Of a DNA stretch of 64,000 nucleotides, positions 5,220 through 58,177 are shown piece after piece. The notes beneath the pieces were generated by a model. It had not been told where the DNA came from. It worked only from the letters and a program-made list of their open reading frames with translations, and ran no database searches. Position 1 is the first letter of the stretch. Each line of letters starts with the position of its first letter. Where the stretch lies: the NCBI RefSeq assembly GCF_041107455.1, contig NZ_JBGBPY010000001.1, positions 2,604,001 through 2,668,000 of the forward strand. Direction: 5' to 3'. The DNA is from Rhodanobacter humi (GTDB lineage Bacteria > Pseudomonadota > Gammaproteobacteria > Xanthomonadales > Rhodanobacteraceae). Position numbers and translations under genes: made by a program.

Positions 5220-6466
5220 ATGACAGAGCGGCAGACGGGCCTGGCGGCGGATTTCCGAGAGCGGGCGCGATTCGCGCTGGGCCGCGGCGACGAGGCGCTG
5301 GCGGAACAGTCCTTCGCCCGCGTGCTGGACAGCGAGCCCGGCGACCTGGAGGCGCTGCAGTTTTTGGCCGCACGCCATTTCGAGCGCGGCGAAGCCGCCC
5401 GGGCGATCGAGCACCTGCAGCTGGCGCATCGTGCCCACCCGCGCGAGCCGGGGGGGGGGGGGCTGCACCAGCTGGGCACGGTGCGGATGGCGCTGGCGGA
5501 TCATGCGGGCGCGGCCGCCGATCTCGACAAGGCGCTGGCGTTGGCGCGGCGGATGTTCGTGGCCCGCCTGCGGCTTGGCGTGGCGCTGGCTCAACGACGC
5601 GACCACCGCGCCCGGCATCCGCGCAGCGGTGCAGCATGCAATGCGCCTCGTGGATGCTGGGCGGCACGCCTTGTTCGACGGCATGCTGGAACCGCTGCGC
5701 GAACGCTACGACCACTCGGAACTGCGCCGTGTCGAGCAATGCCTCGCGATCTACCTGCACGAGCAGCCGGCGAACCTGCCCGATCTGCGGCAGCAGCCGA
5801 AATTCCCGTACTTCCCCGGCATTCCCAGCCGGACCTATTACCCGCGCGAACGCTTCCCCGAACTCGAGGTGCTGGAGGCGGGCGCCGCCGCGATCCGCGG
5901 GGAACTGCGTGCTGTGCTGGAGTAGCCGCGGGATCTGGAAGCCTTCCTCAAGACCGGCACACGGGAGCAACTGGAGACCATGCTGCACGGCTCGGGCGCG
6001 CAGCCGGCGGCGTGGGACGCGTATTTCCTCTACCACCACGGGCAGCGCTACGACGCGCACTGCGCGGCCTGCCCGCAAACCACCGCGCTGGTCGAGCGGA
6101 TGCCGTTGTCGCGGATCCGCGAACACGGGCCGGAGACGCTGTTCTCGGTGCTGCGCCCCGGCACCCACATCCTGCCGCACCGCGGTGTCACCAACACGCG
6201 CCTGGTCGCCCACTTGCCGCTGATCGTGCCGAAGGGTTGCGCGCTGAACGTGGGCGGGGAGATTCACGAGTGGCAGGAAGGCCGCTGCGCCACCTTCGAC
6301 GACACCTTCGAGCACGAGGCCTGGAATCGCAGTGACGAGACCTGCGTGGTGCTGATCTATGGACTGCTGGAACCCCGACCCCAGCGAGTCGGAGCGCACC
6401 GCCATCGCCACCTTGGTCGCCGGCATCGGCGACTTCAACCGCAGTTGCGGGTTGCCGGGGGAGTGA
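5220..6466 (+). pseudogene. Decayed TPR / aspartyl-asparaginyl beta-hydroxylase gene
   Basis: The frame from ATG 5220 encodes TPR-like helices for about 120 codons. Around 5585 the reading continues only in the next frame (WLNDATTAP onward), apparently after an internal deletion. That frame meets TAG at 5923-5925, continues through FLYHHGQRY, LPHRGVTN and FEHEAWN (the likely iron-binding His motifs of the 2-oxoglutarate hydroxylase fold), then needs a +1 shift near 6361 to reach DCWNPDPSE and the TGA at 6464-6466. Together these are three lesions. A run of 13 G at 5450-5462 lies inside the TPR part but keeps the frame. The intact family couples TPRs to an Asp/Asn beta-hydroxylase domain. The neighbouring receptor and sulfotransferase genes suggest it once belonged to that module. 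Confidence 0.8.
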
Positions 6467-7032
6467 GGTGAGGCCTGGCGTGGCGGGTTTCGAATGCCGC
6501 ATTGGCATGATCCAGTCAATGCAACAGGCCATGTGCTGACTGCGGTTGCCTGATATTTCGCGGATGTTGTTGCCGTAAATATGTGCGGCCGAGGCGAAAT
6601 TTCAAATAAGCATTATGGCCGGTCAGATTGCCGCCGATGCAAGACGGTGCATGTCATTGCATGCAACGACATGGATCATGCACATATCGAGGTTGCCATG
6701 TTGCAACGCGATCGTTCGTGCGTAATTTTGCGCAAGATGCGCAGCATATATCGTTTGCCTCGGCATGCCGAAAGATATTGCGTAAACGGTTGGTTTATAA
6801 AGGATAAATCGTGATTTCTTGTTTGTTGACTTTGCGTTAGACGGATGTTTACTGTCGGTGCGCTTCTAGCGATGTGCTGGATGCAATGCGGTTGCTGCGA
6901 CTCGACATGGTTTCGTTCCAGATGGGTATGCGCACTGGGGCAGTGCGCAGGAGCCGGACAGAGCCAGGCAGACACCGTGTCGGCCAGCAATCAGAAAAAT
7001 GTCGTCATTTTCACTGGGGAGTTTTTAATCTC
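6467..7032. other. Long AT-rich intergenic/leader region before the first receptor
   Basis: 566 nt with no convincing gene. From about 6550 to 6860 the base composition drops well below that of the neighbours. A conserved promoter-like block lies at 6811-6853, and the rest of the stretch to 7032 would be a leader of about 180 nt. Its last part, GGGGAGTTTTTAATC before the ATG, is repeated almost exactly ahead of the second receptor. A 77-codon open frame at 6581-6814 has no ribosome site or recognisable similarity and is not called. Confidence 0.6.
6811..6853 (+). promoter_or_regulatory. Candidate promoter of receptor 1 (duplicated block)
   Basis: A block containing TTGACT (6826-6831), a 16-nt spacer and TTTACT (6848-6853) is repeated at 10701-10743 with only a few changes, while the flanking DNA differs. 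That conservation in two copies, with a -35-like hexamer, makes it the best promoter candidate for the receptor gene. Confidence 0.5.
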
Positions 7033-10000
7033 ATGAATTCCATGAAGTTCAACAACAGGGCGCGTCGCTCCACGGCGCGTCGCACCGCGCTGGCTCTGGC
7101 CATCGCCGCAGGCGTCGGTTTGTCCGGGCAGGTGCTGGCACAGGCCACCACCGGTTCCGTGTTCGGTACCGCGCCGGTGTCGGCGGGCGAGACGGTTCGC
7201 ATCGTCAACAACGCGACCGGCCTGACCCGCGAGGTGGCGGTCGGCAGCGATGGCCGTTATGGCGCCAACCAGTTGCCGGTGGGCGACTACACCGTGTCGC
7301 TGATGCAGGGCGGCAATGCCGTTGCCACGAAGGACCACGTGACGGTAAGCGTGAGCGGCGGTACGCAGGTGCCGTTCGCTACCGCTGAAGGCGGCAAGAA
7401 CGTGCAGAACCTCTCCAGCGTCACGGTCACGGCCAACTCGCTGCCGTCGATCGACGTGTCCTCCACCCGCCAGACCTCGGTGATGACCGCGCAGCAGCTG
7501 AAGGTTCTGCCGCTGGCGCACAGCGCCGAGGCGATCGCGCTGCTCGCTCCCGGCGTGAACCTGGGCGGTGGCACCCTCGGCAATGGCCCGACCGGTACGC
7601 CGCTGGTTTCCATGGGTGGCAACAGCGTCGTGGAAAACGCCTATTACCTCAACGGCTTCAACACCACCGACCCGATCGGTGGCGCGGGCGGCGTGGCGCT
7701 GCCGTACTTCGCCATTGCCGAGCAGCAGACCATCACGTCCGGCTACGGTCCCGAGTACGGTCGTTCGACCGGCGGCGTGATCAGCCAGATCGGCAAACGC
7801 GGCAGCAACGACTTCCATGCCGGTGTGATGGTGTCCTGGCGTCCGGATTGGGCCCAGGGCAACTTCGACAACGTGTATTACATGAATCCGCGGACGCCGG
7901 TGGGTGCCGTGGACAGCAACGGCAACCCTACCTTGGCCGCCAGCCAAGGCAGCACGGCCTATGCTCCCGGCTACGGCCGGATCCAGACGGGCAAGCGGCA
8001 GAACAGCAACTGGTCGACGGTGTATGACGCCTACGTCAGCGGCCCGCTGATCAAGGACAAGCTGTTCTTCTACGTCACGGCCGAATGGCAGCACGACAGC
8101 GACCAGAGCGGCGTGCAGAACTTCGGCATCACGTCGCCGCAGGGCTACTTCCAGTCGAGGGCTTTCAAGAGCCCCAAGATGTACGGCAAGTTGGACTGGA
8201 ACATCAACGACAACAACGTGCTGGAGTTGACGGGCGTCCAGAGCCAGAACCAGGAGCTCAGCAACAACTTCTACAACTACGATTACACGAACCAGAAGGT
8301 CGACAACCTCTACGGTCCGGGCGTGACGACCAAGGATACCTTCAAGATCGGCATCCTGAAGTACACCTCGTATATCACCGACAGCCTCACGCTCGAAATG
8401 CAGTATGGCGTGATGAGCGGGGAGTATTTCAGTGGCCTGAGCGGCGTAAACGCGGCCCCGGTGACCTTCACGGGAGTGCCCGTGCCGGCGGGCGTTACCG
8501 TTCCGAACCTGGTTGACACCACCATCGGCAACCCGGGCCACACCACCAAGGACGCCAACCTGCGCGTCGACTTTGACTGGAAGATCACGGCCGACCACGA
8601 CCTCAAGTTCGGCATCGACAACATCCAGTATCGGGACGATGACGACGGCACCTCGATCCTTGGCGGCGGTGCCTACAACTACGTACAGGGCATTCCGTCC
8701 ACTTTCTCGAACTCGCCTTTCATCGGCAGCCCGGGTTTCGGCAATTACGTCGTCGAATCCCTTGTACAACAGAACGTCACGATTGCGGCCCGCCAGAAGG
8801 CGCAGTACGTGGAAGACCGCTGGCAGGTCACGCCCAACCTGTTGCTTGACCTTGGCCTGCGCAACGACCAGTTCGAAAACACCGGTCCCGGTGGTCTTGC
8901 CTACGTGAAGGAAACCAGCCCGCAGTGGGCGCCGCGCCTGGGCTTCAGCTGGGACGTGTTTGGTGACAGCACGTTCAAGGTCTTCGGTAACGCGGGGCGT
9001 TACTACTTGGCGTTGCCGGCGGGTCTGGCCGCACGCAACTCTGCGTTCGGCTCGATCAACGGCACCATCGTCTCCACCTACACGGGCATGACTGCGACGG
9101 GTGTGCCGACCGGGCTGACTCCGCTTCCGGTGGCGCCGATTCCGGGTGTGACACTCCCGCCGGGGTATTTCTCGTCGGATGGCGAGAATGGTCTCGTCGG
9201 CAACATCAAGGACTATGCCTCGACCAACCTCAAGCCGCAGTATCAGGATGAATACGTGCTGGGCTTCCAGAAGATGCTCGGCGACACCGGTCTGGTGCTC
9301 GGCTCGCAGGCGACCTTCCAGAAGGCCGGCAATCTCGTGGATGACACCGACGTCGCAGTTACGGATGCCAATGGCAATCTCGTTAACGTCATTGCGGGTC
9401 TGGTCAATCCGGGCAAGACCAATTACATCCCGCAACCCGGCGGTGCGATCACGTGGGACCCGAACACGGGCGCCGGGATTTATACGCAGGATCGACCGTT
9501 CATCGGATTCCCGAAGCCGTCGCGCAAATACTACGCTCTGGATACCTATCTGGAACACACTTGGGACGGCAAGTGGTTCGGCAAAATCGACTACCTGTTC
9601 TCCAGGTCGTACGGCAGCACCGAAGGTCCGACCGACACCGCGATCGGGCAGATCACGAACCAGACGAATGGTGGTTTTTCGGGTTCGACCACGGCGCAGT
9701 GGGATTTCCCGAACCTCATGGCATACGCCAACGGTGAACAGGCCAATAGCCACCGCCACACCATCAAGGCCTTTGGCTCGTATGCCATCACGCCGGAATG
9801 GATGGTCAGCGGCACCTTCATCATGCAGTCGGGTGCGCCGAACGTGTGCCTGAGCGGTTACGGCTCCGTAATTGATCCGGACGCGTACAACGGCCCCTAT
9901 CAGCACTTCTGCGGTGGTGTACCGAGCGCCTATACGGGCCTGACGGGCCCGGGCTACCCGGGTCAGCCGCCTAACAAAGATGGTTCGTATAACCCCATCG

Positions 10001-10302
10001 GGACGGGTGGCATGCCGTCGCCCCCGGGGACCAGTGGCCATACTCCGTGGACCCACCAGCTCAACCTGAGCTTGACGTACACGCCGGAATGGGCGAACAA
10101 GCACCTCACCTTGCAGTGGGAAGTGCACAACGTGTTCAACGAGCAGAAGGCGACGCTGTACTACACCCAATACGCCATTGGCAACGGTGGCACGGCCAGC
10201 GGCGCCAATGCGGGCACGTTCCTGTACAACCCGGTCTACCATACCGCGCAGTCGACGGAAGCGCCGCGCTACATGGACTTCAACGTGAAGTACGAGTTCT
10301 AA
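7033..10302 (+). CDS. TonB-dependent receptor, Oar-like, copy 1
   Basis: 1089 residues of an outer-membrane TonB-dependent receptor. A signal peptide (about residues 1-37, ending VLAQA) is followed by a carboxypeptidase-regulatory-like/CNA-type beta domain (about 38-125). Next comes a TonB-box-like SSVTVTA segment, a plug with LNGFNTTDP and YGPEYGRSTGGVISQIGKRG, and a long beta-barrel rich in aromatic strands that ends in KYEF. This architecture belongs to the Oar/OmpA-related receptors. The substrate is unknown; in related organisms these take up peptides, glycans or metal complexes. The start at 7033 follows a GGGGAG about 12 nt upstream. An in-frame ATG at 7042 is possible. Confidence 0.9.
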   Translation: MNSMKFNNRARRSTARRTALALAIAAGVGLSGQVLAQATTGSVFGTAPVSAGETVRIVNNATGLTREVAVGSDGRYGANQLPVGDYTVSLMQGGNAVATKDHVTVSVSGGTQVPFATAEGGKNVQNLSSVTVTANSLPSIDVSSTRQTSVMTAQQLKVLPLAHSAEAIALLAPGVNLGGGTLGNGPTGTPLVSMGGNSVVENAYYLNGFNTTDPIGGAGGVALPYFAIAEQQTITSGYGPEYGRSTGGVISQIGKRGSNDFHAGVMVSWRPDWAQGNFDNVYYMNPRTPVGAVDSNGNPTLAASQGSTAYAPGYGRIQTGKRQNSNWSTVYDAYVSGPLIKDKLFFYVTAEWQHDSDQSGVQNFGITSPQGYFQSRAFKSPKMYGKLDWNINDNNVLELTGVQSQNQELSNNFYNYDYTNQKVDNLYGPGVTTKDTFKIGILKYTSYITDSLTLEMQYGVMSGEYFSGLSGVNAAPVTFTGVPVPAGVTVPNLVDTTIGNPGHTTKDANLRVDFDWKITADHDLKFGIDNIQYRDDDDGTSILGGGAYNYVQGIPSTFSNSPFIGSPGFGNYVVESLVQQNVTIAARQKAQYVEDRWQVTPNLLLDLGLRNDQFENTGPGGLAYVKETSPQWAPRLGFSWDVFGDSTFKVFGNAGRYYLALPAGLAARNSAFGSINGTIVSTYTGMTATGVPTGLTPLPVAPIPGVTLPPGYFSSDGENGLVGNIKDYASTNLKPQYQDEYVLGFQKMLGDTGLVLGSQATFQKAGNLVDDTDVAVTDANGNLVNVIAGLVNPGKTNYIPQPGGAITWDPNTGAGIYTQDRPFIGFPKPSRKYYALDTYLEHTWDGKWFGKIDYLFSRSYGSTEGPTDTAIGQITNQTNGGFSGSTTAQWDFPNLMAYANGEQANSHRHTIKAFGSYAITPEWMVSGTFIMQSGAPNVCLSGYGSVIDPDAYNGPYQHFCGGVPSAYTGLTGPGYPGQPPNKDGSYNPIGTGGMPSPPGTSGHTPWTHQLNLSLTYTPEWANKHLTLQWEVHNVFNEQKATLYYTQYAIGNGGTASGANAGTFLYNPVYHTAQSTEAPRYMDFNVKYEF

Positions 10303-10358
10303 GCCACACCCTCCCAGCTCATGCCGTCGCGAGCAGCGGCATGAGGGAAGGAGATGCA

Positions 10359-10402
10359 GAAACGAACAAGGCCGCCGGGCAACCGGCGGCCTTGTTCGTT
10401 TC
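10359..10402. terminator. Bidirectional terminator
   Basis: A perfect 20-bp inverted repeat (10359-10378 with 10383-10402; core AACAAGGCCGCCGG) has a 4-nt loop and A/T-rich outer ends, so each strand ends in a short T-rich tail. It lies between receptor 1 and the convergent sulfotransferase remnant. A second, weaker hairpin (10318-10345, CTCATGCCG arms) precedes it. Confidence 0.85.
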
Positions 10403-10625
10403 AGCGCCCCAATCTTTCGCGAAGTGGCTGCAGCCATGCCAGATACGGCGCGCTGTGCGCCGTGTCGGTGCGGATGGGCTCGCGCACCTGCGCCGCGCTC
10501 GCCGTACTGAGCACTTCGCGCCGGGTCCGATGCGGTGCGAGGCAGGCGGGGTCGAAGGGCGGTTCGCAGAACGTGAGCAGGTGATGGATCTGCGTTTCGG
10601 ATTGCAAGGAGGTTTTGGCAAGAGC
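10401..10625 (-). pseudogene. C-terminal remnant of a TPR-sulfotransferase
   Basis: The minus frame encodes about 72 residues that align without gaps to the last part of the intact sulfotransferase at 14237-15799, including FDPACL, REVLSTASAAQVR and DTAHSAPYL. The TPRs, the 5'-PAPS loop and the 3'-phosphate loop are missing, so no activity is expected. Similarity fades near 10625. The position directly after a receptor and its terminator mirrors the intact gene after receptor 2, which shows that the receptor-sulfotransferase pair was duplicated and one enzyme copy was deleted. Confidence 0.85.
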
Positions 10626-10700
10626 GGCGGAAGCCGACGGGCATGCAAATCGTAAATTCATGCTTATAAGCAGAAATATAATGCGTTTATGCATGAATTC

Positions 10701-10743
10701 GTAATTTCTTGATCGTTGACTTTGCGTTAGACAGATGTTTAAT
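10701..10743 (+). promoter_or_regulatory. Candidate promoter of receptor 2 (duplicated block)
   Basis: Second copy of the conserved block: TTGACT at 10716-10721, a 16-nt spacer, TTTAAT at 10738-10743. The following leader (10744-10971, about 229 nt) has no gene that I can support and ends with the same GGGGAGTTTTTAATC motif as copy 1. Apart from these shared parts the leaders differ. Confidence 0.5.
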
Positions 10744-10971
10744 CTCGGTATGCACCAAGGCAGTTAGCATGCAGGCTGTGACCACGATCTTGCGATGGAT
10801 GATCCCGGTTCGGATGTTTCTGAAGAGATGTCTGGCCTGTTAGCTCGACTTGCTTGATTTCCGGTGCCGCGCTTTAGGGGGCATGGCGGGTCTCTGGCGG
10901 GTGCCGAGACACTGCCGTGCCTGCCTGCAGTTCAAAAGTCATCTTTATCTCGCTGGGGAGTTTTTAATCTT

Positions 10972-13900
10972 ATGAATGCCATGAAGCTCAATAATGTGGC
11001 GCGCCGTTCCGCGGCGCGCCGCACCGCGCTGGCTCTGGCCATCGCCGCGGGCGTCGGCTTGTCCGGGCAGGTGCTGGCGCAGGCCACCACCGGTTCCGTG
11101 TTCGGTACCGCGCCGGTGTCGGCGGGCGAGACGGTTCGCATCGTCAACAACCAGACCGGCCTGACCCGCGAGGTGGCGGTCGGCAGCGACGGTCGCTATG
11201 GCGCCAACCAGTTGCCGGTGGGTGATTACACCGTGTCGCTGATGCAGGGTGGCAACGTGGTTGCCACGAAGGATCATGTGACGGTGAGCGTAGCGGGCGG
11301 TACGCCAGTACCGTTTGCCGTTGCCGAAGCCGGCAAAAACGTGCAGAACCTCTCCAGCGTCACGGTCACGGCCAACTCGTTGCCATCGATCGACGTGTCC
11401 TCCACCCGCCAGACCTCGGTGATCACCTCGGAGCAGCTGAAGCAGCTGCCGCTTGCGCGCAATGCCGAGTCCATCGCCGTGCTGGCGCCGGGCGTCGCCG
11501 GCGGCAACGCCAGCCTCGGCACCGGCCCGGCCGGCACCCCGCTGATCTCCTTCGGCGGCGACTCGACGGCTGAGAACGCCTACTACATCAACGGCTTCAA
11601 CACCACCGACCCGGTGGGCAACGCGGGCGGCATCGCCCTGCCGTACTTCGCCATCGCCGAGCAGCAGACCATCACCTCCGGCTACGGCGCCGAATACGGC
11701 CGCTCCACCGGCGGCGTGATCAGCCAGATCGGCCACCGCGGCGGCAACGACTTCCATGCTGGCGCCTATGTGACTTGGGCGCCGACTTGGGCGCAAAGCG
11801 GCTACGACAACATCTACTATGCGAACCCGGCGTCGACCACGGCGGGCCAGCAGCCAGGCGACATCTACGTCAATCGCCGCAAGAACGAAGACTGGAGCAC
11901 GGTTTACGACGCCTACATTTCGGGCCCGCTGATCAAGGACAAGCTGTTCTTCTACATCACGGCCGAGGCCCAGCACGACAGCGGCAAGAGCACTGGTTCG
12001 GTCAATGCGCCGTACTACAACTCGCACAGCATGAGCTTGCCCAAGCTCTACGGCAAGCTGGACTGGAACATCAACGACAGCAACGTTCTTGAAGCCACCT
12101 ACGCCTCGAGCAAGGCCGAAGACCTCTCGAACAACGCCTACAACTACGACTACAGCAACAACCGCATCGGCAGTTTCAACTCCATCAACAACCCGCTGTA
12201 CTCGAGCAAGTTCGACATCGGCATCCTGAAGTACACCTCGTACATCACCGACAACCTCACGCTGAGCGTGCTGGCCGGCAAGATGAAGAGCACGTACTAC
12301 AGCCAGCAAGTGCCCTATGCGGGCTTCGACAAGATGCTGGCGGGCGTGTCTAGCGTTTCAAGGCAGAATCCGACCGTTCCGGGTGCTGGCAACACGAACA
12401 ACAACCCGCTGACCATCCCTTCTCCGGACCACAAGTCCACCGAGAACAACTTCCGTCTGGACCTCGACTGGAAGCTGGGCGATCACGACGTGAAGTTCGG
12501 TATCGACAACATGCGCAGCACGGACAAGAGCGACGGCAGCCAGAGCGCCGGTCCGGGGTATTACTGGATCTATGGCAAGGAAGGGTCGAAGAACTTCTCT
12601 TCGCCTACCCTGTCGTGCAACGCACTGGGCCAGTGCGTCGACAACCCGATCAACTACCCCAACGGCGGCGCGGTGGGCGGCAACAGCTACTACGTCGTGA
12701 AGCGGACCTATGGCGGCGTGGCCTCGTTCACGGTGGAGCAGAAGGCGCAGTACGTCGAGGACAACTGGCAGGTCACGCCCAACCTGCTGCTGAACCTCGG
12801 CCTGCGCAACGACCAGTTCACCAACTACAGCGCCGGCAATCAGCCTTACATCCGGGAGACCTCGCCGCAGTGGCAGCCGCGCCTGGGCTTCAGCTGGGAC
12901 ATCTTCGGCGACAGCAGCGCCAAGCTGTACGGCAACGTGGGGCGTTACTACCTTGCCTTGCCCACGGGTTTGGGCGTGCGCATGGCAGGCGCCAATGCCT
13001 ACCTCAACGAGTACTACACCTACTCGTCCATCGATTCGAACGGCATTCCGCAGGGCCTGACCCAGGTTCACACGAGCGCGACGCCATACTCGCCCGACGG
13101 CGAGTACGGCACGCCGAAGGATCCGAAGACGATTGCCGCCTCGGATCTGAAGCCGATGTACCAGGACGAGTACGTGCTGGGCTTCCAGAAGACGCTCAAC
13201 GCGTTCGGCCAGGCGCTGGTCTGGACCTCGCAGGCGACCTACTCGAGGATGAACAACATCATCGATGACACCGGTACGGTCAACATGCCTGCCGACGCGG
13301 ATCCGGTCGCGTTCCAGACGGACATCCTGGTCAATCCCGGCCGTAGCAACAAGGTGCGCTACCTGGCGACCGACGGTACCTACAAGACCTACATCTGGAA
13401 CCCGCACACCGCGTCCGCTGCAGGAAATGTCGTGGGCTTCCCCGCGGCGTTCCGCAAGTACTACAGCCTGGAAGAAGCCCTCGAGCATCCGTGGGACGGC
13501 AAGTGGGCCGGCAAGATCGACTATGTGTTCGCCAAGAGCTACGGCACCACGGAAGGCCCGACCTACTCGCCGCTCGGCCAGATCTCCAATGCCTCGGCTG
13601 CTGCGGGTGGCGGCCAGTCCGCCTCGATCAGCGAGGCTTGGGACTTCCCCGAGCTGATGCAGTACTCGAACGGCGAGCTGCCGAACTCGCATCGTCACAC
13701 GCTGAAGGCCTACGGCACCTATGCGATCACTCCCGAGTGGTTGGTCAGCGGCCTGTATATCGTTCAGTCGGGTGCACCCATCACCTGCCTGGGCGCTTGG
13801 GGACCGGGCCAGACCGATCCCGACGGCTACGGCGAGGCTTATCACTGGTGTGATGGCCAGCCGTCGCCCCCGGGCAAGGCCGGTCATACACCATGGACCC

Positions 13901-14133
13901 ACAAGCTCGATCTGTCCGTCAGCTACATTCCGGAGTGGGCCGGCAAGCACTTGACTCTGCAGGTGCAGGTCCAGAACGTGTTCAACGAGCAGCACGACAC
14001 GGCTTACGTCGTCACCCACGATGGTGTGGGTGGTGCGCCGGACACCGCGTACAAGCTGCCGATCGGCGGTGTGACGGGCTATGCGGTGGAGCAGCCGCGG
14101 TTCGCGGAGTTCAGCGTCAAGTACGACTGGTAA
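10972..14133 (+). CDS. TonB-dependent receptor, Oar-like, copy 2
   Basis: 1053 residues with the same plan as copy 1: signal peptide, carboxypeptidase-regulatory-like N-domain, TonB-box-like SSVTVTA, plug with INGFNTTDP and YGAEYGRSTGGVISQIGHRG, and a beta-barrel ending in VKYDW. The first about 140 codons are almost identical to copy 1 even at third positions, whereas the barrel has diverged strongly, especially in loops (for example the Cys-containing loop LSCNALGQCVDN). The pair therefore probably recognise different ligands. The start at 10972 matches that of copy 1. Confidence 0.9.
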   Translation: MNAMKLNNVARRSAARRTALALAIAAGVGLSGQVLAQATTGSVFGTAPVSAGETVRIVNNQTGLTREVAVGSDGRYGANQLPVGDYTVSLMQGGNVVATKDHVTVSVAGGTPVPFAVAEAGKNVQNLSSVTVTANSLPSIDVSSTRQTSVITSEQLKQLPLARNAESIAVLAPGVAGGNASLGTGPAGTPLISFGGDSTAENAYYINGFNTTDPVGNAGGIALPYFAIAEQQTITSGYGAEYGRSTGGVISQIGHRGGNDFHAGAYVTWAPTWAQSGYDNIYYANPASTTAGQQPGDIYVNRRKNEDWSTVYDAYISGPLIKDKLFFYITAEAQHDSGKSTGSVNAPYYNSHSMSLPKLYGKLDWNINDSNVLEATYASSKAEDLSNNAYNYDYSNNRIGSFNSINNPLYSSKFDIGILKYTSYITDNLTLSVLAGKMKSTYYSQQVPYAGFDKMLAGVSSVSRQNPTVPGAGNTNNNPLTIPSPDHKSTENNFRLDLDWKLGDHDVKFGIDNMRSTDKSDGSQSAGPGYYWIYGKEGSKNFSSPTLSCNALGQCVDNPINYPNGGAVGGNSYYVVKRTYGGVASFTVEQKAQYVEDNWQVTPNLLLNLGLRNDQFTNYSAGNQPYIRETSPQWQPRLGFSWDIFGDSSAKLYGNVGRYYLALPTGLGVRMAGANAYLNEYYTYSSIDSNGIPQGLTQVHTSATPYSPDGEYGTPKDPKTIAASDLKPMYQDEYVLGFQKTLNAFGQALVWTSQATYSRMNNIIDDTGTVNMPADADPVAFQTDILVNPGRSNKVRYLATDGTYKTYIWNPHTASAAGNVVGFPAAFRKYYSLEEALEHPWDGKWAGKIDYVFAKSYGTTEGPTYSPLGQISNASAAAGGGQSASISEAWDFPELMQYSNGELPNSHRHTLKAYGTYAITPEWLVSGLYIVQSGAPITCLGAWGPGQTDPDGYGEAYHWCDGQPSPPGKAGHTPWTHKLDLSVSYIPEWAGKHLTLQVQVQNVFNEQHDTAYVVTHDGVGGAPDTAYKLPIGGVTGYAVEQPRFAEFSVKYDW

Positions 14134-14200
14134 GAAGACAACTCCCTCGCCTGGCGTCATCGCAAGTCGATGCCGTCAGGGGGAGGCGAGAAGCAGGATA

Positions 14201-14232
14201 AACAAGGCCGCCGGGAAACCGGCGGCCTTGTT
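14201..14232. terminator. Bidirectional terminator
   Basis: Perfect 14-bp stem AACAAGGCCGCCGG (14201-14214) with its inverse at 14219-14232 and a GAAA loop. It serves receptor 2 and the convergent sulfotransferase. It is the same terminator sequence as at 10359-10402, another trace of the duplication. Confidence 0.85.
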
Positions 14233-14236
14233 CGTT

Positions 14237-15799
14237 TCAGTGCGCCAACCGCTCCCGCAGCGGCTGCAACCACTCCAGATATGGCGCGCTGTGCGCCGTG
14301 TCCGCGCGAATGGGCTTGCGCACCTGCGCCGCGCTCGCCGTGCTCAGCACTTCGCGTTGGGTCTGGTGCGGCGTGAGGCATGCGGGATCGAAAGGCAGCT
14401 CGCAGAACGCGAGCAGGCGGCGGATCTGCGCTTCGGGCTCGCGTACCAGTGTTTCGTAGGAGTAGTCGAGCACGTGCTGCGGATGGCGTGCCAGCCAGAA
14501 CGCGCTGAGGCGTTCGTAGTCGCGGTAGTGCTCGGCCATCTCGTCGAGGTCGTAGCTGTAATGCACGCCGTGCCGGAACAGGTGGCGGTAGCAGGAGAAG
14601 CAGGTTTCCACCGGATCACGGTGGCAGTGGATGATTCTTGCGCCGGGCAGCATCAGGCGTACGGCGCCCAGCAGTGGCCAGTTGGCGACGTTCTTGTCGG
14701 TGAAGCGAGGGCTTCGCTCGCGCCAGCATGCGGTACGGGCGAGGTAGTCCTTGCCGAGTCGGTGCCAATCGTCGGTGGTGGCTGCGCTTGCCCACTGCGG
14801 GAAGGGCTGGCCGCGGCGGCGCGATTCGTCTTCGATGACCTGCGGCAGGTCGGGAATTTCGTTGGCGCCCTCGACGTCGGGATGCGTGGCGAGGATGTGC
14901 TCGACCAGGGTGGAACCCGAGCGCGGCATGCTGGCGATGAAGATGACTTCGTGACCCAGCGTGGAGTCCATCGGCTCGGGTAGCGGGGCGCTGAAGACCG
15001 CCATGATGCGGTCGACCCGCGCGCGCGCGGCGTCGGCGTCCCATTCCACCTGGCGCCGTTTGGCCGCGTTCGCCTGGCGCAGCGCTTCAAAGGCGCCGGC
15101 GTAGTCCTGCTGGTCTTCCAGCGCGCGGAACAGGCTGAAGCCGAGCATCACCTGCGTGTCGGGCGGCAGGCCCGGCTGACGCAAGGAGTTGCGGATCGGC
15201 TCGATGTCGGCCGGCCCCAGCGATTCGGTCTTGAGATTGGCCAGGCCATGCCATGCTTCGGCGCACCCGGGTTGCTGGCGCAGCACGTGCCGATACTCGG
15301 CCACGGCGTGCGGAATGTCGCCTTGCATGGTGGCGATGTCGGCCACGCCGATGCGGGCCAGCACGTGTTGTGAGTCCAGCATCAGCGTGTGGCGAAAGGC
15401 CTCATCGGCATCGCGCAATTGGCCCCGCTGTTTCAGTGCCTTGCCAAGGTTGTACCAGTTCGATGCCTGCCCGGGCGCCAGCTCACAGGAGCGACGCAGA
15501 TGAATCAGCGCTTCGTCCAAGGCGCCGGCATCGTGCAAGGCGCAGCCCAGATAGGTCCGCATGTTGGCGTCGGTGGGCCGTTGCGCTACGGCCTTGCGCA
15601 GCCAGTCGGCAGCCTTGGCGGCGTGGCCACTCATCAGGCAGGCAACGCCGTACAGGTATTGCGCGTCGACCAGCGCGGGATTTGCTGCCAGCACCTGCGT
15701 CAGCGCGTGCTCGGCGTGGTCAAGCCGGCCTTGGCCGAGCGCCTTGCCGGCTTCCGCCATCAACTGGCCGATATGGGCGGAGGTTGGAGGCGAAGACAT
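14237..15799 (-). CDS. TPR-containing sulfotransferase
   Basis: 520 residues. The N-terminal half (about 10-245) is a run of TPR helices for partner binding. The C-terminal half is a PAPS-dependent sulfotransferase domain. The 5'-phosphosulfate loop is MPRSGSTLVE (about 291-300) and the 3'-phosphate-binding region is IHCHRDPVETCFSCYR (about 390-405). It should transfer sulfate from PAPS to an acceptor, perhaps a protein or peptide held by the TPRs, but the acceptor is not known. It starts 3 nt after the stop of the glutaredoxin fusion gene, so the two are co-transcribed, and it converges on the receptor 2 terminator. Confidence 0.88.
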   Translation of the reverse strand: MSSPPTSAHIGQLMAEAGKALGQGRLDHAEHALTQVLAANPALVDAQYLYGVACLMSGHAAKAADWLRKAVAQRPTDANMRTYLGCALHDAGALDEALIHLRRSCELAPGQASNWYNLGKALKQRGQLRDADEAFRHTLMLDSQHVLARIGVADIATMQGDIPHAVAEYRHVLRQQPGCAEAWHGLANLKTESLGPADIEPIRNSLRQPGLPPDTQVMLGFSLFRALEDQQDYAGAFEALRQANAAKRRQVEWDADAARARVDRIMAVFSAPLPEPMDSTLGHEVIFIASMPRSGSTLVEHILATHPDVEGANEIPDLPQVIEDESRRRGQPFPQWASAATTDDWHRLGKDYLARTACWRERSPRFTDKNVANWPLLGAVRLMLPGARIIHCHRDPVETCFSCYRHLFRHGVHYSYDLDEMAEHYRDYERLSAFWLARHPQHVLDYSYETLVREPEAQIRRLLAFCELPFDPACLTPHQTQREVLSTASAAQVRKPIRADTAHSAPYLEWLQPLRERLAH

Positions 15800-15802
15800 G
15801 GG

Positions 15803-16702
15803 TCAGGCTGAGTGCCACGCCTCCATGCCGCCCGCCACGTTGTGCACGTGGCTGAAGCCGTGCGCGGCGAAGCGTTCGGCCACGCCCTGGCTGGAGATGC
15901 CGCGCTGGCAGATGAAGGCGAGTTCGGTGTCTTTGGGCAGGGCGGCGAGCGCCTCGTAGCCTTCGTCCTCGAGGATGCGCGCCTGCGGCAGCGCGGGCAG
16001 CTGGGCGCGCGCGGCGGCGGGGCGTACGTCAATCAATGTGATGCTGTCGGCGGCGAGGCGCTGCTGCAGTTCCTGCACGTCCATCGACTTCACTTCCTGC
16101 GCGCCGGGGAATTTCAGGCTCAGGCCCTCGCCCTGCACGGTGGAGACCCAGTCGATCACGATGCCCTTGGCACGCTGGGCGCTGGCCGGGTCGAAGTGCA
16201 CTTCCAGGCCGTTGGCGTGGGCGACGATGTCGTGCTCGCTGGCCGGCGCGAGCTGGAAGCCGGCGCTGTGGTCGGGGCCGATCTCCAGGTGCAGCGCGAG
16301 GCCCTGCGCGTTGGCCGTGCCTTCGCGGATCGCCTTGGCGGCGGCGTCGGTGATGGTGATCGCGGGTGGCGTGCGATCCGGCGCGGCGAGGCCGAACAGT
16401 GCGTGCAGTTCGCCGCTGCCGTACATCTGGCGGATGATGTCGGCGCCGCCGACCAGCTCGCCTTCGACGTAGAGCTGCGGGATCGTGGGCCAGTCGCCAT
16501 AGGCCTTGATGCCTTCGCGGATCTCCGGATCCTCCAGCACATTGACCGTGTGGTACTCCGGCAACAGCTCATTGAGCGTGTTGGTGGCGGCGGCGGAAAA
16601 GCCGCAGGCCGGCTGGAGCCGGTTGCCCTTCATGAACAGCACCACGCGGTGGCTCTTGAGCAGGGATTCGATGCGTTCGCGGGTGGCGGTGTCGAGGGAC
16701 AT
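15803..16702 (-). CDS. Monothiol glutaredoxin / A-type-like / rhodanese fusion protein
   Basis: 299 residues in three parts. Residues 1-105 are a Grx4-type monothiol glutaredoxin with PACGFS (Cys33) and the GSH-site WPTIPQLY and GGADI. Residues about 115-205 look like a HesB/IscA fold (ITITDAAAKAI, VHFDPASAQRAKGIVIDW) but without the ligand Cys residues. Residues about 212-299 are a rhodanese domain with active-site loop CQRGISS (Cys265). A role in cytoplasmic iron-sulfur or persulfide transfer is inferred from the families. GGAG lies about 8 nt before the ATG at 16702. It is the upstream gene of the operon with the TPR-sulfotransferase. Confidence 0.85.
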   Translation of the reverse strand: MSLDTATRERIESLLKSHRVVLFMKGNRLQPACGFSAAATNTLNELLPEYHTVNVLEDPEIREGIKAYGDWPTIPQLYVEGELVGGADIIRQMYGSGELHALFGLAAPDRTPPAITITDAAAKAIREGTANAQGLALHLEIGPDHSAGFQLAPASEHDIVAHANGLEVHFDPASAQRAKGIVIDWVSTVQGEGLSLKFPGAQEVKSMDVQELQQRLAADSITLIDVRPAAARAQLPALPQARILEDEGYEALAALPKDTELAFICQRGISSQGVAERFAAHGFSHVHNVAGGMEAWHSA

Positions 16703-31620: not shown

Positions 31621-31697
<77 letters not shown>

Positions 31698-31758
31698 TGA
31701 CCTGTGCACCTCCTGCGCAAGAAGCCGCACCTCCGTGTGCGGACTCTTCATCAGGCAT

Positions 31759-31834
31759 GGGGCCATAGCTCAGCTGGGAGAGCACCTGCTTTGCAAGCAG
31801 GGGGTCGTCGGTTCGATCCCGACTGGCTCCACCA
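31759..31834 (+). tRNA. tRNA-Ala (TGC)
   Basis: 76 nt including CCA. The acceptor GGGGCCA pairs with TGGCTCC (with a G-T pair), the anticodon loop is TTTGCAA (TGC), and the T arm is GGTTCGATCCC. Second tRNA of the 16S-23S spacer, co-transcribed with rRNA. Confidence 0.97.
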
Positions 31835-53199: not shown

Positions 53200-56100
53200 T
53201 CACCGATCCGGCATCCAGGCGTCACGCCAGGCGACCAGGTTGTCGCCGGTGAGCATCCAGTCGCGCTGCACCATCGTGCGCAGCGCGTCGCCCATCTTCG
53301 CGGTGGCGTCAAGGTCGCCAGCGTGCATGCGGATCGCGTCCACCCATTCCTTGAAGCGGTTGCGCACCCGCGTCACCGGCAAGTCGCCCCGGTAGCAGAC
53401 GATGTCGCTGCACACCACCGGGAAGCCGCAGGCGCCGTATTCGAGCAGGCGCAGGTTGCTCTTGCAGGCGTTGAACAGGTTGTCCTCCAGCGGCGCCAGC
53501 GCGAGGTCGAGATCGAGCGAGGCCAGGGCTGCCGGATACTTGTCGATGGGCACGCCGTCGTGGTGCTCGTGTACGTACGGACGCAGCTTCTCCGGGCACA
53601 TGCCGAAGAACACCCATTCGACCTCGCCGGCCAGCTCGCGCACCACGTCGGCGATCAGTTCCAGGTCGCCGCGGTGGCTGCTGCCACCGGCCCAGCCCAC
53701 ACGCGGTTTGGCGCCCTTGCGGCGCCGGCTGGCCAACTGTCGCCACCAGTCCATGGGCAGGCGGTTCGGCACCACGCGGATGTCGCTGTGCATGTCGGCG
53801 AACTGCTCGGCCAGTGGCGCGGTGGAAACCACGAAGCGATCGGTGAGTGCCACGGCCTTGCGCAGCGATTTCAGCACGTCCCTGGGGATGCCGTCGCGAT
53901 GCACGCTCTTGAGCGGCAGGTTGGGCAGGTAGTCGTCCAGCTCGTAGACCTTGAAGGCGCGGCTGAAGTCACGGTAGTCGCGCATGGTCTCGAGCTGGCT
54001 GTCGCTGAGCTGGCGCTGCAGCACGATGGTGGACGGCGCGTAGCGCTCCATCCCGATCGGCTCCAGGTGCATCGGTGCGATCGCGCCTTCGGCCAGTCCC
54101 TCCCGCTGCATGGCGTGGAACGGTTGCCGGATGCGGTAGTGGCCGCAGCCGTTGGCATCGGCGGCCACGCAGAACAGGCGGGGCAGCAGCGGCTGCTCGA
54201 AGGGCTGCCAGGCCTGCGGCCGGAGCTGGTCGAGGTCGAAGCCGTTGCCGGCCAGGCTGAGGTTGCGGTTGTAGGCCGGATCGCGTGCCAGCAGCGGCAA
54301 CCACTTGCGGTACATCGCCTGCTGCTCGCCCTTGAAGCGCGCGTGCTTGGCTTCCTGGGCGGTCTGGTCCACCTTGTTCTGGCTGACGCTGCCCTCGTGC
54401 ATCAGGCGCGCATAGGGCGTCCACACCGTGAGGTAGCCAGCCTGATGCACCTTGAGGCACAGGTCGACGTCGTTGTAGGAGACCTTGAAGTCCTGCTCGT
54501 CCAGCCCGCCGACTTCCTCGTACACCGACTTGCGGATCATCAGGCAGGCGGCGGTGACCGCGGTGTAGTTCTGGTCCACCTGCAGGCGGTGCATGTAGCC
54601 GGGCGCGTCCATGGGCTCGCCGATGAAGGGATGGTCGGCCGGCCCGCGCAGGCCAAGCACCACGCCGGCGTGCTGGATGCGCCCGTCGGGGTAGTGCAGC
54701 TTGGCGCCGACGATGCCCACCTCGGGCCGTTGCGCGTGGTTGAGCAGCGCCTCGATCCAGTCCTCGTGCAGCACTGCGGTGTCGTTGTTGAGCAGGACCA
54801 GGTATTCGCCGCGCGCCTGTGCCGCGGCGAAATTGTTGATTGCGGAGTAGTTGAACGGATGCGGCCAGCGCAGCACGCGCAACTGCGGGTTGTTCAGCCG
54901 CTCGATGCCGTCGAGATAGGCACACGCGGCCGGGTCGCGGCTGTCGTTGTCCACGATCAGCAGCTCGTAGTTCCTGTAGCTGGTCTTGGCGAGCAGGCTG
55001 TCGATCAGGCCGTTGAGCATCGGCAGCTGGTCGCGGGTGGGGATGATGATCGAGACCGGCGGCTGGCGATCGTGCAGGTAACGCACGCGATGGACGCCGG
55101 TCAAAGCGTCGGACGCGATTTCGTGGCGGATGCCCAGGCGGTCGAGATGGCCTGCCACGACTGCGGCGGCATGCTCGCGCACCGGTGGCGACGCCAGCCA
55201 TTGCGCGTAGGGTTGGCCGGCGCGGTACAGCACCTCGGCAAGATGTCCCACGGATTGCAGGCCATGTTGTTCGATGCTGCGGAACGCGAAGTCGTAATGG
55301 GCGAGCGGCCCGCGTTGCGCATTCAATCCGCCCAGTTCGAGCAAGGCTTCCCTGCGCATGGCCAGGGTGCGGCCCAGGTAGGGATAGCTGCGCAACATGT
55401 CCAGGTTCAGGTCGGGCTTGAGGATCGGCTGCCCGTAGCCATCGCCGACACGCGTGTCCTCGTCGACATAGCAGCAGGCGTGCTCCGGACGGGTGCCGGC
55501 GTTCTCGGCGAGCAGCAGCAGCGCATGCGGCGCCAGCTCGTCGCCGGCGAACAGCGGGAGCAGCCAGTCCGCGTCGCTGGCGGCGGCCAGTTCATTGAAG
55601 CGTTCGACCCAGTCGCCATGCAGCGATTGCAGTGCGGCGCCGGGGCAGGCGAGATCGTCACGATCCGACAGCACGGTCACGCGCAGGTCGCGATGCTGCT
55701 GCCCGGCGAGGCTGTCGAGGCTGGCCTGGACGTCGGCGGCCGTGCCGTCAGTGTCGATGACGACGACTTCCACGGAAAGCGGGGTCTGCCGGCCTTGAGC
55801 CAGCGCGGCGTGTTGCGGCGTAAGCCGCTGGGGCTGCAGCCAGTGGCGATAGATCTCTTCGGGGGTGGCGGCGCGGAAGCTGACGGCCGGATCCCGGCCA
55901 TCCTCCAGCACCGAACTGCGGAAATAGTCGCCGTGATGGACGGCGACGATTTCGTCCGTGTGGGCGTGGCGCACGCCCATGTCGAGCAGACGCTCCCACA
56001 AATCCCAGTCGCCCGGGTGGAAGTACTTCCAGCACCCGGGGTTGTAGCGGAAGGTCTTCAGCCCGGCGTGGTACAGGCTGCCGATGCGTGATATTTCGCT

Positions 56101-56739
56101 GAAGCGCGGGATGGCGCTGCCGACCACGCCCTGCTCGTTGCCGTCGTCGTCCAGGAAGCGGACGCGTCCGTGCGCCCATTCGGCGCGGTTTTCCCGTGCG
56201 GTGCGCAACAGGCTCGAAAGGTGATCGGGCAGGAATTCGTCGTCGTCGTCCAGATGGGCGATCCACGCGCCGCGGGCCACGCGCAGGCCGAAGTTGACCG
56301 GCTTGATGCCGGCCACGTACCACATCGGCCCCTTCGACGACGGGTATTTCCCGCGTCGGCGCAGGTTGTGGAAGCGTATGCGCGGGTCGTCCTGCGCGGC
56401 CGCATGCAGGATCGCCGCCTGCGACGCTTCCATGCAGTCGCCGACGATCAGCAGCTCCCAGTTCGCGTGATCCTGGCGCTGCACGCTCGGCAGCGTGCGC
56501 TGCACGATCAGCTCGGCACGGTTGTACGTGGGAACGATGACCGAGACCAGCGGTTGTTCGCCGTAGGCCGCCGCATAGTCGGGAGCGCGGCGGATGCGTT
56601 CGAGGCACGCCGCATCGCCGGCGCGGAGCCGCGTCTTTTCCCGCAGGGCATGTTCGTCGAAGAATTGCTGCATCAGTCCGATGCGCTGTTGCAGCTTTTC
56701 GCAGTGCTGCTGCAGCAGGGCCGTCTCGGTGTGGCTCAT
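53200..56739 (-). CDS. Giant multi-domain glycosyltransferase (flagellin glycosylation)
   Basis: 1179 residues. A GT2 domain (about 62-300; VSVIVPTYNR, DDDDEF as DXD-type site), a degenerate GT2-like segment (about 330-480), a second GT2 (about 560-810; VSIIIPTRD, VLLNNDTAV, SYNDVDLCLK) and a C-terminal GT4-like domain (about 850-1179; GWAGGSSHRGDLELI, CKSNLRLLEYGACGFPVV). The multi-domain layout resembles Fgt1-type flagellin glycosyltransferases of plant-associated bacteria. ATGA overlap with the upstream aminotransferase stop couples translation. It converges on the methyltransferase gene with a 55-nt gap. Cytoplasmic; flagellin is the likely acceptor. Confidence 0.85.
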   Translation of the reverse strand: MSHTETALLQQHCEKLQQRIGLMQQFFDEHALREKTRLRAGDAACLERIRRAPDYAAAYGEQPLVSVIVPTYNRAELIVQRTLPSVQRQDHANWELLIVGDCMEASQAAILHAAAQDDPRIRFHNLRRRGKYPSSKGPMWYVAGIKPVNFGLRVARGAWIAHLDDDDEFLPDHLSSLLRTARENRAEWAHGRVRFLDDDGNEQGVVGSAIPRFSEISRIGSLYHAGLKTFRYNPGCWKYFHPGDWDLWERLLDMGVRHAHTDEIVAVHHGDYFRSSVLEDGRDPAVSFRAATPEEIYRHWLQPQRLTPQHAALAQGRQTPLSVEVVVIDTDGTAADVQASLDSLAGQQHRDLRVTVLSDRDDLACPGAALQSLHGDWVERFNELAAASDADWLLPLFAGDELAPHALLLLAENAGTRPEHACCYVDEDTRVGDGYGQPILKPDLNLDMLRSYPYLGRTLAMRREALLELGGLNAQRGPLAHYDFAFRSIEQHGLQSVGHLAEVLYRAGQPYAQWLASPPVREHAAAVVAGHLDRLGIRHEIASDALTGVHRVRYLHDRQPPVSIIIPTRDQLPMLNGLIDSLLAKTSYRNYELLIVDNDSRDPAACAYLDGIERLNNPQLRVLRWPHPFNYSAINNFAAAQARGEYLVLLNNDTAVLHEDWIEALLNHAQRPEVGIVGAKLHYPDGRIQHAGVVLGLRGPADHPFIGEPMDAPGYMHRLQVDQNYTAVTAACLMIRKSVYEEVGGLDEQDFKVSYNDVDLCLKVHQAGYLTVWTPYARLMHEGSVSQNKVDQTAQEAKHARFKGEQQAMYRKWLPLLARDPAYNRNLSLAGNGFDLDQLRPQAWQPFEQPLLPRLFCVAADANGCGHYRIRQPFHAMQREGLAEGAIAPMHLEPIGMERYAPSTIVLQRQLSDSQLETMRDYRDFSRAFKVYELDDYLPNLPLKSVHRDGIPRDVLKSLRKAVALTDRFVVSTAPLAEQFADMHSDIRVVPNRLPMDWWRQLASRRRKGAKPRVGWAGGSSHRGDLELIADVVRELAGEVEWVFFGMCPEKLRPYVHEHHDGVPIDKYPAALASLDLDLALAPLEDNLFNACKSNLRLLEYGACGFPVVCSDIVCYRGDLPVTRVRNRFKEWVDAIRMHAGDLDATAKMGDALRTMVQRDWMLTGDNLVAWRDAWMPDR

Positions 56740-57932
56740 GGGTGGCATGTCCCGGCGGGATGGCTGCTCGTCGGCCGGATCGTGCCGGCCGCTTCGGCAA
56801 GCACGACAGCCAGCGACTCGCAGACGCGGCGGATCTGCGCCGTCGTGATGTCCAGGTAGAACGGCAGGCCGAGCAGGCGCTCCGAAAGCGAATGCGCCAC
56901 GGGTAATGGCTCGGCACCAAAGCTGGCGAAGGCGGGGTGGCGGTCGAGGGTGGGGCAGTACCATTGCCGCGTCTGGATACCGCGCGCCGCCAGCTCCTGC
57001 TGGATTTCCCGGGCGTGCACGCCGGATGGCAGCGCCACCACCAGGATCGGGTACACGCCACCCACCGCCTGTTCCTGCAGGACGACTCCCGGGCAGGATC
57101 GCTGCAGTTGCCTGAGGTAGCGCGCCTGCAGCGCGCGGCGCGAACGTTCGATGTCGGGCCATTGATCCAGCGAGGCCAGTGCGACGGCGGCGTGGTACTC
57201 GCTGAGCTTGCCGTTGCCGCCGGGGAAGAACACCTGGCTGCCGTGCTCGAGATCGATGCCGAAATTGCTCAGCGTGCGTATCCGCGCGGCCATCGCGCGG
57301 TCGCGAGTGACGACGAAACCGCCCTCGCCGGCGGCGAGCGCTTTCGTGGCGTGCAGGCTGAAGGCCACGTGGCAGCGCCGCGCGGCCTGCTGGTTGCCGA
57401 AGGCGCCCGCGGCATCGATGAGTACGGGAATGCCGGTGTCCTCGACGAAGCGATCCCACGCCGTGATGTCTTGCGCGAGCCCGAACGTTGCGACGGGCAT
57501 GACGGCGTCGATCCGTCGGGATGTCGCGATCCGCCGCGCGATTTCCGGTGTGAGCAGCCAGTTGCCGGCGGCCACGTCGGCGATCAGCGGCATGTGGCCG
57601 ACGCGGATGACGGCGGTGGCGGTGGCGACGAAGGTGAGTGCCGGCAGCAGTACCTGTGCGCCGGACGGAAGCTGCATGGCGCCCAGCGCCAGCTCGAGCG
57701 CGGCGGTGCCGCTGGACAGGCTGACCACGGCGGGACTGTCGCCGGGGTCGAGCTGCGTGGCCAGCCGCTGCTCCAGTTCGTTCGCGAGCGGACCGAAATT
57801 GGTGTACCAGCGCGCGGCATCGATGCGTCGAAGATACGGCAGCAACGCGTCGGCGTCCGGCAATTGCGCGCGCATCAACGGAATTGTCGAGGCGTGCCCG
57901 ATTGCCTCGTCCTGCATGGTGGCCGCTTGCAT
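56736..57932 (-). CDS. DegT/DnrJ/EryC1 sugar aminotransferase (VioA-like)
   Basis: 398 residues with PLP motifs SSGTAALELAL, LLPALTFVATATAV and the Schiff-base Lys in SLHATKALAAGEGGFVV. Family members convert dTDP-4-keto-6-deoxyglucose to the 4-amino sugar. In Pseudomonas syringae VioA makes the viosamine precursor for flagellin, which fits this locus. AAGG is 5 nt before the ATG at 57932. It heads the aminotransferase-glycosyltransferase operon, and a sigma54 promoter lies 80-95 nt upstream. Confidence 0.85.
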   Translation of the reverse strand: MQAATMQDEAIGHASTIPLMRAQLPDADALLPYLRRIDAARWYTNFGPLANELEQRLATQLDPGDSPAVVSLSSGTAALELALGAMQLPSGAQVLLPALTFVATATAVIRVGHMPLIADVAAGNWLLTPEIARRIATSRRIDAVMPVATFGLAQDITAWDRFVEDTGIPVLIDAAGAFGNQQAARRCHVAFSLHATKALAAGEGGFVVTRDRAMAARIRTLSNFGIDLEHGSQVFFPGGNGKLSEYHAAVALASLDQWPDIERSRRALQARYLRQLQRSCPGVVLQEQAVGGVYPILVVALPSGVHAREIQQELAARGIQTRQWYCPTLDRHPAFASFGAEPLPVAHSLSERLLGLPFYLDITTAQIRRVCESLAVVLAEAAGTIRPTSSHPAGTCHP

Positions 57933-58012
57933 GTGCCTTGCCTCGCGATGGAAGTTCCGGCGCTCGCGACATCGACGGTTTTACGTCGCGGAGCGGCCTT
58001 TCATCGGTTGGA

Positions 58013-58027
58013 GCAAGGTTGGTGCCA
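58013..58027 (-). promoter_or_regulatory. Sigma54 promoter of the aminotransferase-glycosyltransferase operon
   Basis: Minus strand TGGCACCAACCTTGC, an exact TGGCAC-N5-TTGC element. It is about 80 nt upstream of the aminotransferase ATG, so these sugar genes should be expressed with the FleQ/RpoN-dependent flagellar genes. Confidence 0.8.
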
Positions 58028-58177
58028 AGCCGTGGATCGGTCTGCAGGAGAGCTGTTGCGCCGACTTGAGGGTCCAGGCAACGCAAGGAGTTGTCGACAA
58101 GCCATACGACCGATACCTGCCGCAGGCAGGATCAGGCGCATATCCCGTGCCAACGCAAAGAAATTTCGGGAAATGAC

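What the first reader, a model, noticed from the sequence alone, without database searches (positions are those of the whole stretch)
5220..16702. A receptor - TPR-sulfotransferase - beta-hydroxylase module that may define an uptake and modification system
Two Oar-like TonB-dependent receptors, a TPR-sulfotransferase (intact plus a remnant), a glutaredoxin/A-type/rhodanese fusion and a decayed TPR-Asp/Asn hydroxylase lie together. Both modification enzymes pair TPRs with a catalytic domain and could act on a peptide or on the receptor. The families are established; their joint function is inference. This is my best candidate for an undescribed system.
Basis: partly seen in the sequence, partly recalled or inferred. 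Interest (0 to 1): 0.72.

Follow-up and report, generated by a model that had tools for sequence, protein, structure and literature searches.

The report
Receptor paired with a dedicated sulfotransferase
Rhodanobacter-like bacteria keep certain outer-membrane uptake receptors right beside a cytoplasmic enzyme that looks built to add sulfate to proteins, and in one receptor class the pair evolves as a single unit, hinting that these receptors may be chemically modified before export.

Summary
The glutaredoxin/rhodanese fusion is a flanking gene. In the window's own genome 7 of 7 long STs lie within 7 kb of a receptor. At order level, 43 of 60 TPR-hydroxylase loci hold both a receptor and a full-length ST, against 0 of 12 LpxO-like control loci. 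The core is receptor plus ST: in 71 of 75 adjacent pairs the ST lies on the receptor's 3' side. In the classical receptor class, receptor and ST distances correlate at r=0.97 where flanking genes give 0.14-0.34; for the window's Oar class the contrast is weaker (0.69 against 0.40-0.49). The hydroxylase is a looser accessory, normally beside a different receptor class, and dead here. Best reading: a cytoplasmic enzyme with OGT-like TPRs and a tyrosylprotein-sulfotransferase-like fold modifies its receptor before export. No acceptor residue was found and no chemistry shown; a peptide substrate remains possible.

The parts
5220..6466 (+). TPR-Asp/Asn beta-hydroxylase (PF05118), pseudogene; both presumed iron-binding His motifs are still readable in its pieces (motif recalled)
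   Evidence: Pieces in two frames plus a TAG; lesions against the intact L009 gene; intact relatives hit PF05118 at 4.7e-50 and human ASPH structures at about 1e-29
7033..10302 (+). Oar-like TonB-dependent receptor 1 (start codon chosen by me upstream of the signal-like region; longest ORF from 6874)
   Evidence: PF25183 1.3e-22, Plug, PF00593
10404..10628 (-). Remnant of the C-terminal part of a TPR-sulfotransferase, where the convergent partner of receptor 1 would lie
   Evidence: 80 bits, profile positions 180-246; convergent receptor-ST order as in L009 and L010
10972..14133 (+). Oar-like TonB-dependent receptor 2 (start codon chosen by me; longest ORF from 10864)
   Evidence: PF25183 6.3e-24, Plug, PF00593; 97% identical to the L009 copy
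14237..15799 (-). Intact TPR-sulfotransferase, 520 aa, convergent with receptor 2, about 100 bases between the two stops
   Evidence: PF13469 plus TPRs; model pLDDT 91; OGT/SPY-like TPR superhelix plus tyrosylprotein-sulfotransferase-like catalytic fold
15803..16702 (-). Monothiol glutaredoxin / A-type / rhodanese fusion: conserved flank, judged not part of the unit
   Evidence: TIGR00365 over its cut-off; present only in one of the gene contexts of the unit

Best explanation
A two-gene unit: a TonB-dependent receptor and a dedicated cytoplasmic TPR-sulfotransferase. Most likely the TPR superhelix binds an extended stretch of the unfolded, not yet exported receptor and the catalytic domain, of the tyrosylprotein-sulfotransferase kind, moves sulfate from PAPS to a side chain (Tyr most likely), so that the receptor reaches the outer membrane carrying sulfate. 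In related genomes further enzymes join as accessories: a TPR-Asp/Asn beta-hydroxylase, a small 2-oxoglutarate oxygenase and a hydroxylase-sulfotransferase fusion. In this window the unit was doubled, one sulfotransferase is reduced to a remnant and the hydroxylase has decayed. Shown here: families, fold, adjacency, order and orientation, co-divergence, absence of an obvious signal or membrane segment in the enzymes. Inferred: substrate, acceptor residue, timing, role in ligand binding.
For: Own genome: 7 of 7 long STs (TPRs seen in 6, the seventh not examined) within 7 kb of a receptor plug; 5 random loci did as well 0 of 20,000 times, rotating all seven 19 of 20,000; non-TPR STs 0 of 4. Order: TPR-hydroxylase loci, receptor in 44 of 60, full-length ST in 50 of 60, both in 43; LpxO-like controls 0 of 12. 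The 43 fall into 8 groups of gene context. 71 of 75 adjacent pairs have the ST on the receptor's 3' side (49 same direction, 22 convergent), 71 of 75 with under 300 bases between. ST subfamily follows receptor class: 3 changes on the tree over 66 labelled rows. Classical class: receptor-ST distance r 0.97, receptor-GRX 0.22 and receptor-AMN 0.15 over 12 loci each (receptor-GRX 0.34 in a 10-locus subset). Fold: TPR part like OGT/SPY, catalytic part like tick and human tyrosylprotein sulfotransferases; R293, E314, K369, R394 and S489 invariant in 16 STs, E314 aligning with the second Glu of the GEET stretch in 8w5z. No hydrophobic 19-residue segment at 1.9 or above in 166 of 166 STs and 37 of 37 hydroxylases.
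Against: No acceptor site found: Tyr conserved in ST-partnered Oar receptors are mostly shared by three close own-genome receptors without an ST neighbour, and no residue stands out in the classical class. Of 39 ST-selected regions only 21 hold a detected receptor; other STs stand by non-receptor genes, some of them exported proteins. For the window's own Oar class co-divergence is weaker: r 0.54 over 23 pairs, and in the shared gene slot 0.69 against 0.40-0.49 for flanking genes. Linked genes also co-diverge by shared descent. Sulfotransfer_3 does not fix the acceptor; one non-protein ST (CurM) also appears in the PDB list. 9 of 60 hydroxylase loci have neither receptor nor ST.
Confidence: 0.48

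Rival explanations
1. Peptide tailoring and uptake: the STs and hydroxylases modify a ribosomal peptide that is secreted and taken back through the receptor, as the sulfotransferase and TonB-dependent transporter of some methanobactin operons do.
For: Precedent seen in passages: MbnS with MbnT in methanobactin operons (PMC3621798); Asp beta-hydroxylation and TonB-dependent transporters in lasso peptide clusters (PMC9266682); PMC10040529 lists neighbouring cluster numbers with lasso B2, sulfotransferase, aspartyl beta-hydroxylase and PqqD.
Against: 71 of 75 pairs leave under 300 bases between receptor and ST. Among 382 small ORFs in 40 loci no family recurs across contexts except one that lies antisense to the hydroxylase. 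No exporter or leader-processing family recurs among the 45 commonest neighbour families printed, most of which carry no name. A precursor gene elsewhere in the genome is not excluded.
Confidence: 0.22
2. Intracellular conversion of the imported ligand: the receptor takes up a phenolic or peptidic compound and the cytoplasmic ST and oxygenases conjugate or detoxify it.
For: ST subfamily follows receptor class, as would be expected if each ST served one ligand; in one context aminopeptidase genes lie nearby.
Against: No inner-membrane transporter family was recognised as recurring with the unit (most families unnamed); the TPR superhelix argues for an extended polypeptide substrate.
Confidence: 0.17
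3. Linkage without common function: the genes sit together because this slot is a hotspot for receptors and STs, or because they are inherited together.
For: The slot between the GRX and AMN genes collects several receptors and STs; order and number vary.
Against: The unit occurs in 8 groups of context; within the same slot receptor and ST (classical class) co-diverge at 0.97 and not with the flanks; the remaining order (ST on the 3' side in 71 of 75) is not random.
Confidence: 0.13

Closest known systems
Tyrosylprotein sulfotransferases (human TPST1/2, tick TPST; PDB 5wri, 3ap3, 8w5z)
   Same: Catalytic fold (Foldseek) and sequence match 7e-9 to 8w5z over the catalytic part; PAPS-loop and acidic residue in register
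   Different: TPSTs are Golgi membrane proteins without TPRs (recalled); this one is a soluble-looking bacterial protein with an N-terminal TPR superhelix and sits beside a receptor gene
OGT and SPINDLY (TPR-scaffolded protein modifiers)
   Same: N-terminal TPR superhelix leading into a transferase domain
   Different: Catalytic domain is a sulfotransferase, not a glycosyl- or fucosyltransferase
Human aspartyl/asparaginyl beta-hydroxylase (ASPH)
   Same: TPR plus PF05118 in the intact relatives; C-terminal domain matches ASPH structures at about 1e-29
   Different: ASPH acts on EGF-like domains in the ER (recalled); here no EGF-like target is known and the window copy is broken. NCBIfam's nearest names, OlsC and LpxO, are lipid hydroxylases far below their cut-offs
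Methanobactin operons with MbnS and MbnT
   Same: A sulfotransferase encoded with a TonB-dependent transporter (PMC3621798, passages)
   Different: MbnS is PF00685 and acts on a precursor peptide gene in the operon; here TPR plus PF13469 and no precursor found
RaxST / RaxX of Xanthomonas (recalled, no call)
   Same: A bacterial sulfotransferase acting on Tyr of a ribosomal product
   Different: RaxX is a small secreted peptide with its own exporter; no such pair was seen here

Membership tests
Oar-like TonB-dependent receptor | N-terminal carboxypeptidase-regulatory-like domain, plug, PF25183 barrel | tested here: met
   for both receptors; PF25183 and Plug over their cut-offs, PF13620 below its own (27.4 and 28.9 against 32.3 bits)
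Tyrosylprotein sulfotransferase | TPST-type catalytic fold with PAPS-binding loop | tested here: met
Tyrosylprotein sulfotransferase | Catalytic Glu of the GEE(T) stretch (residue number recalled) | tested here: met
   E314 invariant in 16 of 16 STs, aligned with the second Glu in 8w5z
Tyrosylprotein sulfotransferase | Sulfation of protein Tyr | not testable with these tools
   needs enzymology
ASPH-like protein hydroxylase | TPR plus PF05118 in an intact gene | tested here: not met
   architecture met by relatives in L009 and L015, but the window copy is a pseudogene
Methanobactin/RiPP-type cluster | Precursor peptide gene linked to the tailoring enzyme and transporter | tested here: not met
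   (40 loci) and spacing; a distant precursor is not excluded
Conserved receptor-sulfotransferase unit | Adjacency beyond chance in own genome and across genera | tested here: met
Conserved receptor-sulfotransferase unit | Stronger co-divergence than with flanking genes | tested here: inconclusive
   clear for the classical class, modest for the window's Oar class

The most novel reading that the evidence does not exclude
Gram-negative bacteria have a receptor-dedicated post-translational modification pathway: cytoplasmic TPR-scaffolded tyrosylprotein-sulfotransferase-like enzymes, helped in some species by TPR Asp/Asn hydroxylases, a small 2OG oxygenase and hydroxylase-sulfotransferase fusions, decorate TonB-dependent receptors before export, each receptor class with its own sulfotransferase subfamily. 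The fusions suggest that hydroxylation and sulfation may act on the same substrate, perhaps even in sequence on a newly made hydroxyl group.
Probability: 0.4. Interest if true: 0.9.

Novelty: new variant of a known kind. Interest (0 to 1): 0.68.

Why it matters
Protein sulfation in bacteria is hardly known, and sulfation of outer-membrane receptors was not found in my literature searches (open-access full texts only). A sulfated receptor would change ideas on ligand specificity, phage and bacteriocin recognition and receptor evolution. It also gives a concrete, cheap test: one gene deletion and one mass measurement in a harmless soil bacterium.

Tried and rejected
Glutaredoxin fusion as a part: rejected, because it accompanies only one of the gene contexts.

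Acceptor site by comparing ST-partnered and unpartnered receptors: no usable signal. In one search the longest frame was taken for the unpartnered receptors and several were wrong frames; one search replaced them by profile-chosen frames, and only three of the six are close relatives of the partnered ones.

Model of the hydroxylase-sulfotransferase fusion: two-row alignment, mean pLDDT 42, not used.

Precursor peptide: none recurring across contexts.

Phylum-wide view: outside the order only 7 of 19 TPR-hydroxylase loci have a detected receptor and 4 of 19 a full-length ST; my receptor profiles were built on this order, so this may be an undercount.

First redundancy filter for the ST tree compared unaligned positions and removed almost nothing; one search used an aligned filter, which still kept 166 of 174 rows.

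Rows dropped or not fetched: of the hydroxylase matches I fetched 60 regions, taking the list downwards to G005 and leaving out G141, G251 and G059 and the weaker full-length matches below G005; the ST sample (39 regions) was about every third match, skipping those already inside fetched hydroxylase loci (ranks 2, 51, 72) and adding a few, so it is not strictly regular. Counts keep near-duplicate strains (for example L010 and L149). Gene calls are my own simple ORF calls.

Full report
What is there. The window lies in a 4.15-Mb Rhodanobacter-like genome: the closest relatives of its sulfotransferase found in genome contigs are from Rhodanobacter species, the best 90% identical. Between an AMP-nucleosidase-like gene (AMN; name recalled from its sequence) and a glutaredoxin/A-type/rhodanese fusion plus GDSL hydrolase lie a broken TPR-Asp/Asn hydroxylase, two Oar-like receptors, a sulfotransferase remnant and an intact TPR-sulfotransferase. 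Compared with the intact copy in L009, the hydroxylase has several separate lesions. The only other PF05118 match in this genome is a 320-aa frame of the LpxO-like kind (that label is my reading of its length).

Relatives of the locus. Of the eight ST loci found in genome contigs, six (L009-L014) carry an Oar-like receptor of this type in the fetched DNA; L015 carries a classical receptor at its edge and L016, cut by its contig, none by these profiles. L009 has two complete ST-receptor units and an intact hydroxylase. The window remnant sits where the ST partner of receptor 1 would be, so the window looks like a doubled unit that lost one enzyme (inference).

Own-genome statistics. Of 12 PF13469 rows (two of them in one frame) seven are long-ORF STs; TPRs were confirmed in six, the seventh was not examined. 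All seven lie within 7 kb of one of 36 receptor plugs. Five random loci matched this 0 of 20,000 times and rotation of the seven as a block 19 of 20,000 times; non-TPR STs gave 0 of 4. With Oar-like receptors alone it is 3 of 7 (rotation 265 of 20,000 at 3.5 kb).

Order-level neighbourhoods. TPR-hydroxylase relatives were sought in 299 genomes of the order (118 with a match, short LpxO-like matches included). In 60 fetched 20-kb regions a receptor was found in 44, a full-length ST in 50, both in 43, neither in 9. By group: both in 32 of 33 closest relatives, 1 of 12 more distant ones of the same family, and 10 of 15 from other families; the small 2OG oxygenase (PF13640) is in 4 of 45 and 10 of 15. 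Twelve LpxO-like control regions gave 0 for all. Outside the order: receptor 7 of 19, ST 4 of 19. The receptor in 38 of the 60 is a classical one (PF00593 and Plug); an Oar-like one is in 3. The 43 loci form 8 groups of gene context, 18, 14, 6 and five singles.

The unit is receptor plus ST. In an ST-selected sample of 39 regions a receptor is present in 21, and only 2 of 47 ST-selected loci hold a hydroxylase (three sampled ranks inside hydroxylase loci were skipped). In 71 of 75 adjacent pairs the ST is on the receptor's 3' side, with under 300 bases between in 71. On the ST tree, receptor class needs 3 changes over 66 rows (FastTree, local support only). Distances of classical receptors and their STs correlate at r 0.97, with the hydroxylase at 0.54, and with flanking genes at 0.15-0.22 (0.34 in a 10-locus subset). 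For Oar-like pairs the figures are 0.54 over 23 pairs, and in the shared slot 0.69 against 0.40-0.42 for the receptor and 0.43-0.49 for the ST with the flanks.

The enzyme. The model of the ST (pLDDT 91) is a TPR superhelix followed by a sulfotransferase domain. Foldseek gives OGT/SPY for the TPR part and tick and human tyrosylprotein sulfotransferases for the catalytic part. Sequence search of the catalytic part alone gives 8w5z first, 7e-9, and also the polyketide enzyme CurM. STs and hydroxylases show no strongly hydrophobic segment, so they are probably cytoplasmic; the same crude measure also misses most receptor signal peptides, so it is weak evidence. PF05118 and PF13469 are fused in one ORF in L012, L015, L050 and L072.

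Interpretation. A TPR-scaffolded protein sulfotransferase beside, downstream of, and in one class co-evolving with a receptor, with no room or candidate for a precursor peptide, most simply modifies the receptor before export. STs without a receptor neighbour sometimes stand by other exported proteins: a subtilase with PA and fn3 domains in L172, a DUF7933 protein in L178. That fits a wider role in modifying exported proteins, but others stand by no such gene. The acceptor is unknown.

Literature. Searches gave listings only, plus passages from three papers; none described this pairing. Subscription journals and preprints are not covered.

Noticed in passing
L012:17648-19492, L015:14848-16815, L050:2294-4276, L072:5381-7231: Single ORFs joining an Asp/Asn-hydroxylase-like domain (PF05118) with a sulfotransferase domain (PF13469), near TPR-STs.
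   Followed up: partly
window 53200-58086 (-): 1628-aa ORF with GT2 and GT1 glycosyltransferase domains within a run of flagellar-looking genes; possible flagellin glycosylation gene.
   Followed up: no
window 31621-31834: tRNA-Ile and tRNA-Ala pair in a stretch poor in long ORFs, probably inside an rRNA operon (inference).
   Followed up: no
L009:7456-8751: 431-aa protein with a signal-like N-terminus and no Pfam match, between two ST-receptor units.
   Followed up: no
L172:10946-14752 and L178:12627-16511: STs without a receptor neighbour stand beside exported proteins: a subtilase with PA and fn3 domains, and a DUF7933 protein.
   Followed up: partly
L109 (own genome C1:2451000-2470999): Three ST genes in a row beside one classical receptor.
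   Followed up: partly
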